A stretch of DNA of 64,000 nt from Rhexocercosporidium sp. MPI-PUGE-AT-0058. Lineage: Eukaryota; Ascomycota; Leotiomycetes; Helotiales. The position numbers were made by a program, and so were the translations under genes. This document shows positions 48,646 through 58,226 of this stretch, piece by piece (the stretch's first letter is position 1; every line of letters starts with the position of its first letter). The stretch lies in NCBI GenBank assembly GCA_020746875.1, contig JAGTJL010000001.1, positions 434,001 to 498,000 of the forward strand, given 5' to 3'. The notes under the pieces are model-generated. The model saw only the letters and a program-made list of their open reading frames with translations, had not been told where the DNA came from and did not search any database.

Positions 48646-49116
48646 ACTGGGCAGAACTGGTCAATATTTAATATTAGTGTTTGTAATTGGATGACGGATT
48701 TGAAGGTCAGAAGTAACAAAAATCGTGACTGATCTTCTGCCTCATTTATATAGAAGTGAGCACGAACCTTTGGTTTGAAATTGGTTCAGAGAAAGATAGA
48801 TTGGCTAGTTGTTGAGGGAGGAAACGTTGGAGTGTGGAAGGTCAAATCGAAGACTTCGAGAGTCAATTGTCTCCGTTGTACTGAGGTTGAAGAGATTTAA
48901 AGATTGAAGGAAATTAGATGAGACTCGCGTTAAGAAGGACGCGTTAAAGACTTCGAGCTTGTTGAAGATCGATGACGTCGATCGACAGGTAGTCACGTGG
49001 GAGACTAGTATATCCTCAACTTCACTCTCAAGCAGCTCTTGAACATGATTCACTCATTTGAATGACGATATTCTTCTTCAATTCTCAAAATGCGATCGAT
49101 TTGAGACTTCCAATTA
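48646..49116. other. Promoter of AT-hook gene
   Basis: 470 nt between two minus-strand genes. AT-rich, no gene seen. Confidence 0.5.
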
Positions 49117-49510
49117 TCAAATCACTCTGAACATATTCTCCCTCACGCCCCGTTTCAAGCCCACCGCTTTGCCTCCTTCATATTCTACCCCAGCTCCGCC
49201 TCCTTCTCCTGATATCCCCTCAAGCTTCAAGCGAAGCTCTTCATCTTGCTCCAATATTGTCTTTGGTATTTTTGGCGTCTTTTCCTGCTCAACGGACTCT
49301 CCAGCACTGGTTTCTGAATAGGGTTTATCAAGCTCGAGTTCCCCTTTCTTCTTGTCGGCTTTTATGCTTGGCGAACTTTTAGAAGCCTTGTCCAATATTA
49401 GTTAGTATCTGACTGATTTGACGAGGCCCCAAGAAGACACTCAGGTCCCGGCATACCTTTGCAGAGTATCGTCTAGTCGTTGCTCTAGATATCAACTTCC
49501 TTTTCCACAT
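49117..49510 (-). CDS. Small mitochondrial-type protein, 107 aa
   Basis: Two exons, complement 49457-49510 and 49117-49386 (54+270 = 324 nt). The 70-nt intron has donor GTATGC, branch ACTAAC and acceptor AAG. The first exon encodes only MWKRKLISRATTRRYSAK, an Arg-rich import presequence with a likely cleavage site after the Tyr/Ser pair. The mature part is charged (SIKADKKKGELELDK; KIPKTILEQDEELRLKLEGI), then Gly-rich (SGEGGGAGVEYEGG), and ends basic. I do not recognise the family, though the layout resembles small matrix proteins. The first exon is too short to show up as an open frame alone. It reads away from the HET locus across a 350-nt gap. Confidence 0.6.
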
Positions 49511-49860
49511 TTTTGAGAGGTCTAGAAGGTCTAGTACACGCTACTAGAACTGGGTGATGTACTTGTGTTGCAAGCTCGATAGTACGGATATTTGCTTGTT
49601 TGAACTTCAAGGTTTCGAGGAACTCGGATTGGCGTTACATCATCAAAACTGTCTTTCGCCTGAACACGTGTTTGTGCTCACGTGATGTGCATTTTGGAGT
49701 TGCATGGCTGTGAGCGCACCAGCTGAGACTGCCTGCATGGCATCGTTCAAGCATTGCAATACAGCATAGCTTTGGTATTCGAAATGCTTCTTGTTCCTGG
49801 TTCTGTCAGGAGATTAGTGCTAGCATAGCTCCTCGACCCTGCCGACAGCCCTGATGTAAG

Positions 49861-51880
49861 ATGGAGAACAACCGCGAATCCGAGGATATTGCTTGCATTA
49901 TATGTTGCGGCCTCCGCAGAGGCTATGCGCATGGTAAGGGTGCAGGATACCCTCAGGTAACAGTACCGCTCTCTCAACTCGTATGCTCAGGTCAAAAAGG
50001 TTGTCTAGTCTGTGCAGTGCTGGTTGAGATTATCGTCAAATGCGTCCCAGGAGTTACAAAGGGGTCGGATGGCAGTGTATCCATAGGTGAATAACCGGGG
50101 CTAATCCCAAGCCAAAGACATCAGCTCGATATGCTGAGTTCCAAGTAAAATATCTAGTGGTGGAGAATTTGGGGCGACTTAAATCTATGTTGGAACCCCA
50201 CAAATGACGCTCAGGACCGCGTCTGACTCGATGTTTTTCAACTACCTAGTAAGGAGCAATTTGTTGAATGCAGATATTTGGGTTGAGACTTCTCTTCTAG
50301 GACAACATATCCAATTTGAGAATGTGCGAATGGGCAAAGCTCCTTCTGGATTTACTGGTTCTAACCTGGCCCTAAACCTTGCCTTGGAATGGATCACCGA
50401 TTGCACCTCTAAACACAAGATGTGCGGCGATGGCTCTTTGAGAACACTTCCCACCCGCGTTCTTGATCTCTGCATAGGTGAAAACTGCCTCGAAGCAAGC
50501 ATCATTACTGGCGAAGGCAAAATCGCTCGCTACTGTACTTTAAGCCACTGCTGGGGTCAGCGTGGCAATCATCGTCTTCTCACCAAAGCAACCCTCAGCT
50601 CGTGGTTGACAGCGTTTTATATCGGGGAACTGCCTCAAACCTACCAAGATGTTATAGCAGTGACGAAGCAACTTGTCTTACGATATTTATGGATTGATTC
50701 GTTGTGCATTATTCAAGATGATCAGGAAGATTGGGAACGGGAGTCCTCAAAAATGGGCGACATCTATCAAAACTCATACATCACTATTGCAGCGACCTGT
50801 GCAGCCGACAGTAGTGTTGGAATGTTTTCACACGCTAGGCCGATCCACCGCCCTCGAGTCGTCAGCTACAGTCACAACGGGACTGAATCGCATATACATG
50901 CATCTGCATGTCTATCTCATCACGCTTATGATCCTATTTACAATTCTCATAACTCATTCTACCACTGGGCCCTACAAAATCAATCCGATCTCCCTCTACT
51001 CGATCGCGCCTAGGTCTACCAAGAGAGACTTTTGTCCCCCAGAATCTTGCACTTTCTAAGAGAAGAGCTCGCGTGTGAGTGTGTGGAGACTAAACGGTGT
51101 GAATGCAACTACTTCCCCTCTGCCCGAATGTCTGTCAAAGAGAAGCATGCCAAATCGCTAGACGCGTCACTTCATCGAAAACTTCCCCTGCATTCTCGAT
51201 GGCACAGTATCGTTGAGGAGTATTGCGAGCTCAGCATGACCTTTGAGAAAGACAAGCTGACAGCGATCTCTGGAGTGGCTAGGCAAGTGCAAAGCATCTT
51301 AAATGAAAGCTACTTTGCTGGTCTGTGGAGTTCATCCTTCAAAGAAGACCTCTACTGGAGAGCAAATACCAAATTCCGTAGACCGAAGCTACAGAAATGG
51401 CGTGCACCATCCTGGTCATGGGCAGCCATCAATGGCAGAGTGATATGCGGTTCGGCGCCAGCTGTGGAACGGTCTGCAGATATCCTCGACCTCGTTTGCA
51501 ACCCTTCAAGTAGCGATATGCTAGGAGAATTGGATTCCGCATGGATGGAAATATCGGGCAGTTTCTGTAAGGGAATGTTGCACAGCGTAGGCTCGCCCGA
51601 CTCGGACAGCAAGACATTCAATGTGCGTACCGAGACAGGGCACAATTTAAGATCTGTCTTTTTGGATTACGATATTAGCGAAGACCTTCCTATTGGATCT
51701 CTTGATATCTTTCTATTCTTGCTGTACAGTTCTGATGAAGGCAAAGGTCAAAGTGGTGTGCTTCTCCTTCTGAGAAAAGTTGCGGCAGAAAGGGCTGCAT
51801 ATGAGCGGATAGGCATTACAAATCTTGATGTGTGGAGTTACTTTGACTCGTTCCCAAAAACTAGAATCAAGGTTATATGA
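49861..51880 (+). pseudogene. HET-domain gene with premature TAG at the invariant RAW tryptophan
   Basis: An N-terminal exon at 49861 (MENNRESEDIACIICCGLRR, with the CxxC...CxxC spacing of HET proteins) is followed by non-coding or spliced sequence. A long frame opens before 50204 and runs through the HET blocks CTLSHCWGQRGNHRLLTK, LPQTYQDVIAVTKQL, YLWIDSLCIIQDDQEDWERE and YQNSYITIAATCA. At 51011-51013 the sequence reads LLDRA, TAG, VYQERLLSPRILHF. The family has RAWVYQE here, so a single TGG-to-TAG change interrupts it. The same frame continues intact to 51880, ending with WRAPSWSWAAINGRV and a C-terminal region. HET proteins trigger incompatibility cell death on non-self contact. The N-terminal splice is unresolved: an in-frame TAA occurs near 50170. 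Confidence 0.78.
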
Positions 51881-52949
51881 GATTGCAACCGGGCCGCAAT
51901 GGCTCGGTACTTGTCCGGAGACAGCAATCATTTCTATTCCCTCAAGTCCAGGCTCGAGGGTAATCTCGAAGCAGAAACACTCATTTCATAGACAACCCGA
52001 TTTTTAGCGCGCCAGTTACAGCTATTGTCAGAATTACTCAACAGTATCATAAGCCCTACTATCTTTACCTCAGAACATCTCATCATCTCTAGCACAACTC
52101 GTGCCCGCATTCGGTCGTTTGCACAGAAGTCTTAATGTCTAGAAGAAACATTCAATACATCATGACTGGTCATACGACACGGCTTTCTCAGCTTAGTCAT
52201 ATGCACGATAGTCGGCCAGGGCTTTTAGATCATTCTCTTGCTGAAAAGAAACAATGAGTCTCGACCTTACTATCGCACACATCAATGGAAGTACTTGAGA
52301 TCGATTGCCTGGATATGCATGTGAGGTGCTGATTTGGCGGATGAGCAATACTTTGCAAGGCAACACGAGACTTTGCGGCCGGTTCACGCGAAACTCGATG
52401 TTGGTGAGACAATTGTCTATTTGTTTGAACAAAATCCCACACCGGCTTCCCCACGTTCCAACAGGCCACTAGATCTTATTTCCAATGAAAAATCTACTTT
52501 CGACCTGCGATCTGCCTAGGGAGGCTACCAAATCTGCCTTGATGACATTGAAGTGTGTTGTGTAGATTGTTCACCGAGATCATGACGCGTCTCGCGAGCC
52601 TTACCAGCATCTCACCGGGAGCTTTATCCAACATCTCATTAATTGGTAGCCAAAGACCTGCACTCTTGCCCGAGTATGTTTCATGTCGGTGTGACCTTGC
52701 AGGTGATGAATTAAAACAGGGCGTTTTCGTCTGCAAGCAGCTCCGCCGCAACGCCATTAATTTAACACAGCCTTGGACCTGGCACGAGACATCATAGCAA
52801 GACTACTGTATGTACTGAAGAAGTATAAAGTCATGGCCGCCACCTCAACAAAACAAAATTCAGAAGAAACCCAAAAAATTCCTGATCACAATCCTCAAGA
52901 AATCTTTTCCCAACCTCGACTCATCGAGTGATCTTCCCCTTCTTTTGGG
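51881..52949. other. No supported gene
   Basis: This stretch lies between the HET locus and the first CxxH paralogue. Frames at 52193-52797 on both strands overlap and lack motifs. The last part is a promoter. Confidence 0.45.
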
Positions 52950-53750
52950 ATGGAACCTTGCCCTTCAACCAGCATCCCAACTTTCACCATCATACGAGAC
53001 GATGATCTAACTCTCCGCTTTCATCCACCTCATGGATCTTTGGCGCTCATAAACGCCCTTGCTATCAGATACCCTCTGGAACCAAATTTGGAAAGCCAAA
53101 TGAGGCGAGCTCTTCTCGAATTCATCTCGGTCGAGACTCTAAACCGGCCAGCCTCAAAAGAACCACATCGATTTTCTCACGATGACAATCCCATACTTTC
53201 AAACGGCGATGTGACGGTCGCTCCAGAGCCCTTGCACACTTCAAGCGGAAATCCCGAGCTTCCCAATTCCAAACCGCGTCGACAGCAAGCTGGAAGGAAG
53301 TCTCGATACACTCCCAAGAAACGCCGCAAAGTTGCTGAAGTTCGAAAGCTTGGTGCTTGTGACTACCATCGGGAAAAGAAACTAGAAGTATACATCCTTT
53401 TTAGCTTTGTGACCAGTCTACAGCCTCACACTTCGCAGTGCAATTGCCTGTTCCAAAAGATTCCCGACACAACCGAATACAACAATCTCGACCCATCACT
53501 TCCCCACGCTCAAGTATCAAACAACAGTAACGAGAGCATGTCTTATAGTCTGCGACCGAAATTTGCGATTCAGAAAGATGAATATCAAGGTAACGAGTTT
53601 CCATTCTATAGCTTCGACCATGGCATGGCATCTAGCAGCGGAGTACAGGCAGGCAACTTTCCACAGCTATCTAACAGCGACCTCACCTATGTCCCCTCTG
53701 CAACTCAGCCGCCAACTCCATCTACTTGGCACAGCGATCCCTGGAATTGA
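52950..53750 (+). CDS. CxxHx6CxC small-finger protein, paralogue A
   Basis: Two exons, 52950-53387 and 53439-53750 (438+312 nt, 249 aa). The 51-nt GTATAC...CAG intron stays open in frame, so an unspliced frame of 266 codons exists, but splicing brings together the cysteines. An N-terminal domain (residues 8-60, including LRFHPPHGSLALINALAIRY, then ESQMRRALLEF) is followed by a disordered linker and a basic region (RRQQAGRKSRYTPKKRRKVA). The motif VRKLGACDYHREKKLECNC gives C137-x2-H140-x6-C147-x-C149, a likely zinc knuckle. The C-terminal third is Ser/Asn/Tyr-rich and aromatic-acidic, like an activation region. It is clearly homologous to the gene at 57410. A DNA-binding regulator is my inference. 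Confidence 0.75.
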   Translation: MEPCPSTSIPTFTIIRDDDLTLRFHPPHGSLALINALAIRYPLEPNLESQMRRALLEFISVETLNRPASKEPHRFSHDDNPILSNGDVTVAPEPLHTSSGNPELPNSKPRRQQAGRKSRYTPKKRRKVAEVRKLGACDYHREKKLEVYILFSFVTSLQPHTSQCNCLFQKIPDTTEYNNLDPSLPHAQVSNNSNESMSYSLRPKFAIQKDEYQGNEFPFYSFDHGMASSSGVQAGNFPQLSNSDLTYVPSATQPPTPSTWHSDPWN

Positions 53751-54797: not shown

Positions 54798-56502
54798 TCA
54801 TTTAACCTTCTGCTCCACCGCCTTAGGGGCATTTGGCGGTACCTCTGAAGCACTCTGTTCCTCAGTACCTTGCCCCGGCTCGCCCTCTGGGTCTTTCTGT
54901 CTCTCCTTACTAATCTTCCATTTTCTTGAACTTATCATAGACACAAAACCCTTACATCCCTCATAAACCATGACAAGGGGCAACCAAAGAAATATACAAG
55001 CTAATGGGCCGCCAATAGCGACCGCGAACCCGTAGCCTAGGATTTTCGCCCCGAGCACGACGTCTTTGAACATGCCAACAAGAAAGGATGATATGATAAG
55101 CGCACCAAACGTCAACGATCCCAAACCAGCCAGTATACCCAAAGCTTTCCAAATTGGCCTCAGCAATCTCTCCGTCATGAACCTTGAAGCTGTCTCCTGG
55201 ATGAAGCCCCAACAGACTAAGGTCAGAATGACAGCCATGGCGAACCATACAAGGAGACACACGACGCCAAAGAAGTCGTACAGTAGCACCCCTAAATTTT
55301 TCAGCCGCGATTGCATGCTGAGCACACCCGCAGCGAGGGAGAGCGGGAGGAAAAACGCCGCGAGTATTGTGAGCACCTGCACATTATTGCTTTGACGCAT
55401 CGTTCGCGCCAGCTCGAGAAATCTGAGACTGCTATCCATTTCATCTGTCAGGCGACTGAGACGGGCACGTATGTCCTTGCAACATCCTCTGAGAACCGGC
55501 TCCAGAGCAAGAAAGTGGACCATAGATGTTGTGTGGTCATGTAATGAGCTCTTCACGATATCCATCAGTGACTCGAGCGTGTCCGTCATTTCATTGCCGA
55601 TATTCGTGAGCTGTCGGTACTGGTACGAGTCCCTGGCCATTTCTTCCAACACCCAATTACGCAGCTTGGACGAACGAGGATCGAAATCCGGCCTCCTCGG
55701 TTCAACGTAGTCGTTGCGGAAGACTTCTAAGAAGTTTGAAAATACCACGAGGTTTGCGTGCTGGTATTGTAGAAGGAACAGCTTCTCCCAGTTGCTCTCG
55801 TAGCGCATTTTGCAATAGATGCTTTCCAGCTTCTGTAATTCTTCCACGAACACTGCCGTGAGGACGAAGGGGAAAGTCGTCTGCTTCGTCTTGGTACGCT
55901 TCAATGCTTTCAAGAACTTTCGACTGGTTCTAACCATAGTCTTGCAGGAAATATACACTGTTTCTATTAGCTGTGAATTCGCAAAAGACTGTCCACCGTC
56001 CGTCCATCAATTGGTTAGGGTTGCTCGCACCATGGAGACTGCCATCTTTCTCTTTCCGCGTAGTTATCCTCCTCATGATTTGAGCCCACTGCTTTTCAGG
56101 ATCACGCAGCATTTCCTTGAAGATGCGGCTAACTTTCCTTCGCGGCTTCGCTGGTTCCCAGAGGTCTCCAGCAGAACGAGGAGCTGCAAAGTCATAACTC
56201 CTGAGAACACACAACTCGTCTGGGCAGTCTTGCATCCATTGTGAAGCAACTGATTTAAATCCTGTGCCATGTCTCATGGCGGGAGAAAGGCGTTTGTCAG
56301 TGGATTCGTCAATATGAACGTGGATTGTGCAGCCGTTTTGCGGTCCCGCTACATCATCGAGTGAAGTTGCTGAAGAAGCATCCTTATCAACCTGTACCGA
56401 TGTTCCTGGTTCTTTGTTCCCGACAGATGTAAAAAATCTCAGAAACGGGGATTTCCAGCGTTTTGTGGTACGTATGGGGTGCACTGATCTTTGCAAGTTC
56501 AA
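54798..56502 (-). CDS. CorA-like membrane protein, frame-split
   Basis: The C-terminal frame (54798-55958) has a long helical region (LEEMARDSYQYRQLTNIGNE; SMVHFLALEPVLRGCCKDIR), then TM segments beginning TILAAFFLPLSLAAGVLSMQ, the layout of fungal CorA-like Mg2+ transporter relatives. The usual GMN motif is replaced by GVLSMQ. Further TM stretches and a charged tail follow. The N-terminal part (55930-56502) lies in a different frame and ends WTVFCEFTANRNSVYFLQDY. Two readings are possible. A 49-nt intron 55941-55989 with a weak GTCTTT donor would join the frames exactly. Alternatively, because YFLQDYG looks coding, a one-base frameshift could separate them. The first codon of the upper frame is not ATG, so a further upstream exon (near 56572) is likely. 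Function, if intact, is ion transport or membrane signalling. Confidence 0.6.
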
Positions 56503-57409
56503 CGGTATCGTAAAGAATGTCTGAAGTTTGAGCCCAAGAGCCTATGAAAAAGGCAAGTGAGATGGACTCCATATCTCATTTGACCAAGTGGGGTTGAATT
56601 AACACTCAGTTCTCCGTATGGTTAGAGTTTTTGCTGCTGGTCTTTTGGTGTTGGTGTCAGCTTGAGGCGGCCCCAAAATGGTCAAGGAATGGAAGAAGTA
56701 AAAGGGCAAAAAGCGGCTGGCTCAGACCCCACCAATGGCTTCTCAACTACCAACGAACAGTAGAGCGAATTGACGAATCGATTAACCTTGCCAATTTGCT
56801 CATCCGCCGAAGACTTGCATATATAGCAGATTCTCGCCAGGCTATTGGTTATGCTCGTTTAAGAGTAAACAACAGCTTAATACCACCAGGTCAGAGAACA
56901 AGCCATCTAATTTGCACCTTTCTCAGGATTCTGCATCGCAGAAAGCCTCTCGCCAATACAAATTCCCACCTTCTCTGCGCTCATCACACGCAGCCACCCA
57001 CTCAAAGCGGCACGACAGCCTTGCCACTGCGCTGGAGCATCATCAATGGGTTAAAGGGAAGTAAGAACAAACTCCGCCGTTAACTGCCAGACCCTTGTCT
57101 CTTGACAGCTCATTACCTTCGGTGAAGAACCTATCGGTGAGCGAATTAGCCTTCCACCGCACACCATGGGGTTGAGGATGCAATGATAGGTAAGCAGCAT
57201 CCCCGCAATCTGCAGCCTCACTTACGGGAATTTTATCATTAGTCCAGCATAGCAGTCCTCTAAGATTCGGTGTGCAGCTCACGAACGAGCAAAGATACAA
57301 ATCGGTCCATGATTTCCAGTTGAGATCTCGCAGCACAGATAATCACCCTACTTATCCTAGTGTACTGAAGGATAAACAATAACCACCTACTGGATACGCT
57401 AACTTCTCA
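56503..57409. other. No supported gene (divergent promoter region)
   Basis: This includes a possible first exon of the CorA-like gene near 56572 (MESISLAFFIGSWAQTSDIL). A 150-codon plus frame at 56631-57083 has no motif. The remainder is promoter for paralogue B. Confidence 0.35.
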
Positions 57410-58226
57410 ATGGCTTCCACGAGCCCCCAATCCCATATCCCCTGCTACAAAATCGCTCGACGAGCCGATCCATCGCTGCAATTCGACCCACCTGCTGGAT
57501 CTATCGAACTTGCAAATGCACTAAGTCTGAGATTCCCCCTTGAAGCGAGCCTCGAAGATCAGATGCGTCGTGCTATACTTCTCTTCCATGACTCCGATCA
57601 GCTCAACCCAAAATCACTTCAGCTGGGTTATGTACAATACTCGATGGCTGTTCCGGTGTTAGCGGAAAGCTCATCTTCCCCAAACCTCCCGGATTCTACT
57701 ATTGCCTCTGAAGCTCCAAGTTATTCAACGACTCCTCAGAAGATCATAAGCGGAAAATCAGCTGAGCCAAAACGGAGAAAGATGCGATACGACACTTCAA
57801 AACGGACGAAGGTAGCTGCTGTTCGGAAGCGAGACGCTTGTCCTTTTCACAAGGCGAAGAAGATCGAGGTATGAGTTGCTATAAGACTCTTCTCGCCTAC
57901 CTCTAGCTCACAGCTTCAAGTGCACTTGTTTCACCAACAAATCTCCAGCAAATGACAACAACGCTGAAAGAAGTAACGACGACGTTCAAATCGCCTCGCG
58001 GAACACTTTCTCGAGCGAGGACTTGGCGGCTGAGACTTCATCTTTTCAAGAACCGACAACAGCGAACCTCCAAGATTTTGAAGGTACATATGATTCATTT
58101 TTCGGCCTAGATTTCAATCCATGCCATAGTTTCAACGACATGGAAACCATGTCAATGTCGCAAACCAGCCCTGACATCGATTTCGACAATTCGTGGTTTT
58201 CATCGCAAGAATCCCCCAATTTTTGA
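57410..58226 (+). CDS. CxxHx6CxC small-finger protein, paralogue B
   Basis: Two exons, 57410-57868 and 57921-58226 (459+306 nt, 254 aa), with a 52-nt GTATGA...AAG intron. The N-terminal domain aligns with paralogue A (LQFDPPAGSIELANALSLRF; EDQMRRAILLF). The linker is Ser/Pro-rich, then basic (KRRKMRYDTSKRTKVAAVRK). The motif RDACPFHKAKKIECTC gives C144-x2-H147-x6-C154-x-C156, the same spacing as A, and the intron falls at the same place, between the last Glu and the first Cys of CxC. The C-terminal half is acidic and aromatic (DFEGTYDSFFGLDFNPCHSF) with a Met/Ser-rich stretch, resembling an activation region. Together with A it suggests a local duplication around the CorA-like gene. Confidence 0.75.

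What the first reader, a model, noticed from the sequence alone, without database searches (positions are those of the whole stretch)
51011..51013. HET gene stopped by a single TAG at the family's invariant tryptophan
The frame is intact for about 270 codons before and 290 after. The stop replaces the W of the RAWxxQE signature; the sequence reads LLDRA, stop, VYQERLLSP. A single TGG-to-TAG change explains it. Selection appears not to have degraded the rest, so the loss is recent, balanced in the population, or compensated.
Basis: partly seen in the sequence, partly recalled or inferred. Interest (0 to 1): 0.75.

Follow-up and report, generated by a model that had tools for sequence, protein, structure and literature searches.

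The report
Young fungal HET pseudogene, two stops
A self-recognition-type gene in a fungus has recently been broken by at least two premature stop signals, one of them at a position where its relatives share the same amino acid; this is an ordinary kind of gene loss in a very large and fast-changing gene family.

Summary
The TAG at 51011-51013 is real, in frame, and at a tryptophan shared by 115 of 115 aligned homologues. The organism is a Rhexocercosporidium (Leotiomycetes). But it is not the only lesion. Relatives reveal two upstream exons, and exon 2 holds a second in-frame stop, TGA at 50224-50226. The gene is 628 codons with stops at codons 95 and 340; the exon-1 splice junction may be a third lesion. 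The deposited protein P0002 avoids both stops by a start in another frame and an implied 153-nt 'intron' ending at the TAG. The rest is well conserved without consistent acceleration, so the loss looks recent. RIP does not explain it. Stops in other HET copies replace Trp (TAG and TGA) and Gln alike, as ordinary decay would. Sexual-stage A-to-I editing suits this UAG, but not the second stop or what is known of the class. Whether the stop segregates among isolates cannot be tested here.

The parts
49861..50076 (+). exon 1 of the HET gene, 72 codons (MENNRESEDIACIICC ... GSDGS), start ATG at 49861
   Evidence: tblastn of P0069 and P0003; spliced model
50077..50157 (+). intron 1 as required to keep the frame (donor GTATCC, 81 nt). 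P0069 and P0003 have two further residues (VS) before WWR; the alternative donor GTGAAT at 50087 would shift the frame. Possible third lesion, not proven
50158..50248 (+). exon 2 (WWRIWGDLNLCWNPTNDAQDRV-stop-LDVFQLP)
   Evidence: tblastn of P0069 and P0003
50224..50226 (+). second premature stop, TGA, codon 95; Cadophora sp. M221 (P0069) has Trp there, the column is variable in other homologues
50249..50300 (+). intron 2, GTAAGG...TTCTAG, 52 nt
   Evidence: gives the frame QLPRQHIQFENVRMG
50301..51880 (+). exon 3: HET domain and C-terminal part; normal stop TGA 51878-51880
51011..51013 (+). premature stop TAG, codon 340, at the invariant Trp of the RAWxxQE motif
50861..51013 (+). 153-nt 'intron' implied by the deposited protein P0002 (GTCAGC...CCTAG, 51 codons), probably an annotation artefact that hides the stop

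Best explanation
The locus is a young unitary pseudogene of a HET-domain gene. Ordinary point mutation put two premature stops into a 628-codon gene, TGA at codon 95 (exon 2) and TAG at codon 340 (exon 3, at the invariant Trp of the RAWxxQE motif), possibly with a disturbed exon-1 splice junction as well. Translation from the first ATG would end after 94 residues, before the HET domain; a product started downstream would end at codon 340, without the RAWxxQE motif and the whole C-terminal part. Shown: the stops, the exons by homology, the conservation of the rest, the absence of a close copy. Inferred: that no working product is made, and that the loss is recent.
For: Two in-frame stops in the homology-guided spliced model. 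Trp at the codon-340 column in Oculimacula (P0003, P0004), Cadophora sp. DSE1049 (P0005) and Cudoniella (P0006) and in 115 of 115 homologues aligned, so the stop is derived. The rest is little decayed: 1 deviation (the stop) at 52 columns >=95% conserved, 2 at 64 columns >=90%, and no rate increase against P0005 (chi-square 0.02-2.4 with five outgroups). No close duplicate and normal RIP indices leave plain mutation. Broken HET genes are common here: 13 of 150 scored HET matches hold an in-frame stop; reading all 13 by eye, 8 replace a conserved residue (Trp, Gln or Tyr) and 5 lie in variable stretches that may be introns. Stop-bearing het homologues are in print for Sordaria macrospora (PMC2851567, passages).
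Against: No frameshift is needed in exon 3 and the rest is well conserved, which would also fit a gene still under selection. At columns >=80% conserved P0001 deviates at 10 of 99, rank 96 of 116 (median of homologues 6 of 97), though P0003, P0004 and P0005 deviate as often (14 of 99, 12 of 99, 10 of 86; P0006 7 of 99). Against P0069 one of four outgroups gives a higher rate for P0001 (chi-square 6.4). No transcript or second isolate was available.
Confidence: 0.86

Rival explanations
1. The stop is a segregating null allele: other isolates carry the intact gene, and incompatibility-type selection keeps both forms. (Not exclusive of the best explanation: it says that the pseudogene is not fixed.)
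For: The loss looks recent by conservation. Neurospora intermedia and some N. [quoted passage not shown] the het-v locus encodes a methyltransferase and a MLKL/HeLo protein, not a HET domain (abstract).
Against: No second isolate is held, so nothing here shows polymorphism. Most HET-domain genes are not known incompatibility genes: 4 of 132 in Podospora anserina (PMC10890737, passage). Two lesions rather than one.
Confidence: 0.3
2. The gene is functional only in sexual tissue, where A-to-I editing turns UAG (and UGA) into UGG, as in PUK1 of Fusarium graminearum.
For: UAG at a Trp column with U at -1 and G at +1 is a favoured context, and PUK1 too was first annotated with an intron over its stops (PMC7306014 part 1 of 4; PMC11156358 parts 1-2 of 3). 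Both stops here could become Trp by such editing, and the rest of the gene is intact. At the LWID motif the genome has TAG 2, TGA 0.
Against: The second stop is UGA, whose A has G at -1, not the preferred U. [quoted passage not shown] none was identified in apothecia of Botrytis cinerea. Local folds are no more stable than shuffles (z -0.24, 0.42, -0.01); the A is at the 3' edge of a hairpin loop in the 41-nt window only, paired at a stem end in the 61-nt one and unpaired outside a hairpin loop in the 101-nt one. Across the HET loci read, Trp columns hold TAG 7 and TGA 4 (two-sided p 0.55), and TAG also replaces Gln (L019, L064, L070), which editing to UGG would not restore.
Confidence: 0.03
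3. The stop lies in a real intron, and the deposited 507-aa protein P0002 is the product.
For: GT...AG ends, length a multiple of 3, acceptor exactly at CCTAG; it is the deposited model.
Against: It would cut out 51 codons whose end, PLLxRAW, homologues keep (P 111, L 110, R 115 of 115). Donor GTCAGC is atypical for fungi (recalled). About 32 residues at the start of the model come from out-of-frame exon 2 and intron 2. Unsupported introns placed to avoid premature stops are described for Neurospora gene models of a het gene (PMC9262711 passage).
Confidence: 0.06
4. RIP inactivated the gene.
For: RIP raises the chance of amber and ochre stops (PMC1805685 passage), and two HET relics here are clearly RIP-like (L071, L072: GC 0.316 and 0.313, composite index 0.40 and 0.84).
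Against: The gene itself: composite index -0.72, like the window (-0.64); no close duplicate. The TGA is not in RIP context if it came from a Trp codon.
Confidence: 0.04

Closest known systems
HET-domain genes (PF06985) of filamentous ascomycetes; nearest relatives in Oculimacula yallundae (P0003, P0004), Cadophora sp. DSE1049 (P0005) and M221 (P0069), Cudoniella acicularis (P0006)
   Same: HET domain, QERLLSP stretch after the stop and, in the full-length ones, the cysteine-bearing N-terminal region and the C-terminal end (KTRIKVI here)
   Different: two premature stops here; P0003 to P0006 have Trp at the codon-340 column, P0069 is read in another frame there
het-6 and tol-related homologues of Sordaria macrospora with internal stop codons (PMC2851567, passages)
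   Same: het-family gene with in-frame stops
   Different: other lineage; [quoted passage not shown]
PUK1 and other PSC-edited genes of Fusarium graminearum (PMC7306014 part 1, PMC11156358 parts 1-2)
   Same: stop at Trp, UAG context, intron annotated over the stop
   Different: no RNA evidence here, class without known editing, second stop outside the preferred context

Membership tests
HET-domain (PF06985) gene | match above the curated cut-off | tested here: met
   95.1 bits against cut-off 22.5, E 6.7e-27, profile positions 1-121 of 146
working HET-domain protein | conserved RAWxxQE motif (not part of the Pfam cut-off) | tested here: not met
   R and A present, Trp replaced by TAG, QE present: this is the lesion
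pseudogene | lesion(s) that prevent the full-length product | tested here: met
   in-frame TGA at codon 95 and TAG at codon 340
pseudogene | released from selection | tested here: inconclusive
   no consistent rate increase and few deviations at conserved columns: recent, or still constrained
pseudogene | no functional product | not testable with these tools
   no transcripts or proteins
A-to-I PSC-edited gene | UAG at Trp column, U at -1 | tested here: met
A-to-I PSC-edited gene | all stops in the preferred context | tested here: not met
   UGA at codon 95; preference for U at -1
A-to-I PSC-edited gene | edited A in a hairpin loop | tested here: inconclusive
   three windows, three folds, none better than shuffles
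A-to-I PSC-edited gene | edited transcripts in sexual tissue | not testable with these tools
   no RNA data
RIP-inactivated gene | raised TpA/ApT, lowered (CpA+TpG)/(ApC+GpT) | tested here: not met
   gene 0.69 and 1.41; window 0.65 and 1.29
polymorphic incompatibility allele | intact copy in other isolates of the species | not testable with these tools
   only one genome held; nearest homologues outside it 53-57% identical over the part aligned

The most novel reading that the evidence does not exclude
The gene is still used: both stops lie where A-to-I editing would give Trp, and the otherwise untouched 628-codon frame is kept because the mRNA is recoded in sexual tissue. This would be the first sign of such editing in Leotiomycetes and would switch a HET gene on only in the fruiting body.
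Probability: 0.03. Interest if true: 0.75.

Novelty: new member of a known kind. Interest (0 to 1): 0.15.

Why it matters
Modest. It is one more case of quick loss in the HET family, of which this genome has at least 150 matches above cut-off. It also shows how a deposited gene model can hide a pseudogene: a start in another frame avoids one stop and an implied intron the other, so annotation-based counts of working HET genes may be too high.

Tried and rejected
Editing reading: tested by context, folds, lineage, and a genome-wide look at Trp-to-stop in HET copies. The RAW pattern gave 103 places (control, pattern reversed: 15), not all of them listed; among the places listed 11 carry a stop (TAG 4, TGA 4, TAA 3) and the rest TGG. 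Eleven stops are about what chance gives (three quarters of 15). I read all 11 in context: 4 lie in HET genes (window TAG, L078 TAG, L071 and L072 TAA), 7 do not. The LWID pattern gave TGG 159, TAG 2, TAA 2, TGA 0 (controls: 0 for TAG, 1 for TAA/TGA, 0 for TGG); the two TAG loci were read and are HET genes with several stops (L084, L085), the two TAA places were not read. Tally at Trp columns over the loci read: TAG 7 (window, L078, L061, L067, L068, L084, L085), TGA 4 (window codon 95, L067, L069, L085). It is small, was made by eye, leaves out stops at unclear columns (further ones in L067 and L085), and counts codon 95, whose column is variable. RIP: rejected by indices. Duplicate back-up copy: none close. 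The branch-point search did not discriminate, since the accepted intron 2 also lacks CTRAY. No PDB chain matches P0004 at E up to 1. Paper searches with the genus and strain gave nothing; one for HET domain with pseudogenes and premature stop codon gave none, a wider one gave 8, of which I looked at passages of 4.

Full report
What is there. The window is G000:C1:434001-498000 of a 62.7-Mb genome in 60 contigs. A deposited protein of Rhexocercosporidium sp. (P0002) lies on a contig of 5139631 bases, the length of C1, and equals the window frame apart from the cut described below; the organism is thus a Rhexocercosporidium, Leotiomycetes, Helotiales. The TAG at 51011-51013 is in the sequence, between open frames of 276 and 288 codons. 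The first half matches Pfam HET at E 6.7e-27.

Is the column invariant? In a MAFFT alignment of 116 sequences (P0001 and 115 of the 120 listed homologues; dropped were P0002 and four under 450 aa, P0069 among them; P0005, also short, was kept) all 115 others have Trp. In another alignment with homologues of at least 500 aa plus P0069 it is W in 107 of 108; by elimination the exception is P0069, whose tail is read in another frame. Only the 120 best of 5438 hits were listed, so the count is of those.

A second stop. tblastn of P0069 (Cadophora sp. M221) and P0003 (Oculimacula yallundae) onto 49000-52600 recovers an upstream segment in another frame: MENNRESEDIACIICC... and, after an intron, WWRIWGDLNLCWNPTNDAQDRV-stop-LDVFQLP. 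The stop is TGA at 50224-50226. Cadophora M221 has Trp there, but in general the column is variable. A 52-nt intron (50249-50300) joins exon 2 to exon 3 in frame. The spliced model is 628 codons with stops at 95 and 340 and a normal stop at 629; its length agrees with P0004, 630 aa. Intron 1 keeps the frame only with donor GTATCC, which drops the two residues VS that P0069 and P0003 have; the donor GTGAAT ten bases on would shift the frame. This may be a third lesion, but without orthologue DNA it is not shown.

The deposited model. P0002 (507 aa; MTLRTASD...) starts at the ATG at 50204-50206, inside exon 2 but in another frame, so it passes the TGA out of frame, reads through intron 2, and then skips 50861-51013, ending the skip exactly at the TAG (coordinates inferred from the protein). 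The skipped 51 codons end in PLLDRA-stop, and homologues keep PLLxRAW. Ament-Velasquez et al. describe the same habit for gene models of a het gene in Neurospora: unsupported introns placed to avoid premature stops (PMC9262711, passage seen). PUK1 of Fusarium was also first annotated with an intron over its stops (PMC7306014, part 1 of 4 read), and there the truth was editing, so the artefact alone does not decide.

How old is the loss? At 52 columns at least 95% conserved the only deviation is the stop; at 64 columns at least 90% conserved there is one more; at 99 columns at least 80% conserved there are 10, rank 96 of 116, against a median of 6 of 97 and 14, 12, 10 and 7 in P0003, P0004, P0005 and P0006. 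Tajima relative-rate tests against P0005 with five outgroups give chi-square 0.02-2.4; against P0069 with four outgroups 0.4-6.4, one of them above 3.84 (P0001 faster); against P0003 and P0004 with three outgroups each 0.2-9.0, the 9.0 meaning that P0003 is faster. There is no consistent acceleration, so the protein evolved at a normal rate for most of its history.

Why TAG? The model has 63 one-step transitions to a stop, 36 of them at TGG codons, 18 to TAG and 18 to TGA; there are also 201 transversions to a stop. Among transitions, a stop at Trp is thus the commonest outcome. RIP indices are normal and there is no close duplicate; the best other match of the protein in the genome is 38% identical. 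The genome does contain RIP-like HET relics (L071, L072).

Editing test. In the HET loci read, Trp columns hold TAG seven times and TGA four times (p 0.55), and TAG stands for Gln in L019, L064 and L070. At the LWID motif alone it is TAG 2, TAA 2, TGA 0 beside 159 TGG, too few to decide. Of 150 scored HET matches 13 carry an in-frame stop; of these 13, 8 replace a conserved residue and 5 lie in variable stretches that may be introns (my reading). There is no clear sign of a programme that puts UAG at Trp. Feng et al. [quoted passage not shown] the review by Wang et al. says that none was identified in Botrytis apothecia and that over 70% of sites have U at -1 (PMC11156358, parts 1 and 2 of 3 read). 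Folds around the TAG are unremarkable.

Verdict. A young pseudogene with at least two stops.

Noticed in passing
52932-53750 and 57383-57874 (+): Two related ORFs in tandem, no Pfam match, each with a basic stretch around VRK-x-x-AC-x-x-H-x-x-KK-x-EV that recalls a changed zinc-cluster motif (resemblance recalled).
   Followed up: partly
54798-56541 (-): Two adjoining frames, perhaps exons of one gene; the first has a CorA-like tail (PF01544, 20.6 bits, below cut-off).
   Followed up: no
L071, L072: AT-rich HET relics with strong RIP-type dinucleotide bias, a sign that RIP or a like process has acted in this genome.
   Followed up: partly
P0069 (Cadophora sp. M221) and P0005 (Cadophora sp. DSE1049): Both Cadophora models of the orthologue are short (313 and 331 aa); P0069 changes frame before the RAW motif and lacks the LSHCWG stretch, so the gene may be broken there too.
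   Followed up: partly
whole genome G000: At least 150 HET matches above cut-off, out of 526 candidates of which only 150 were scored: a very large HET set.
   Followed up: partly
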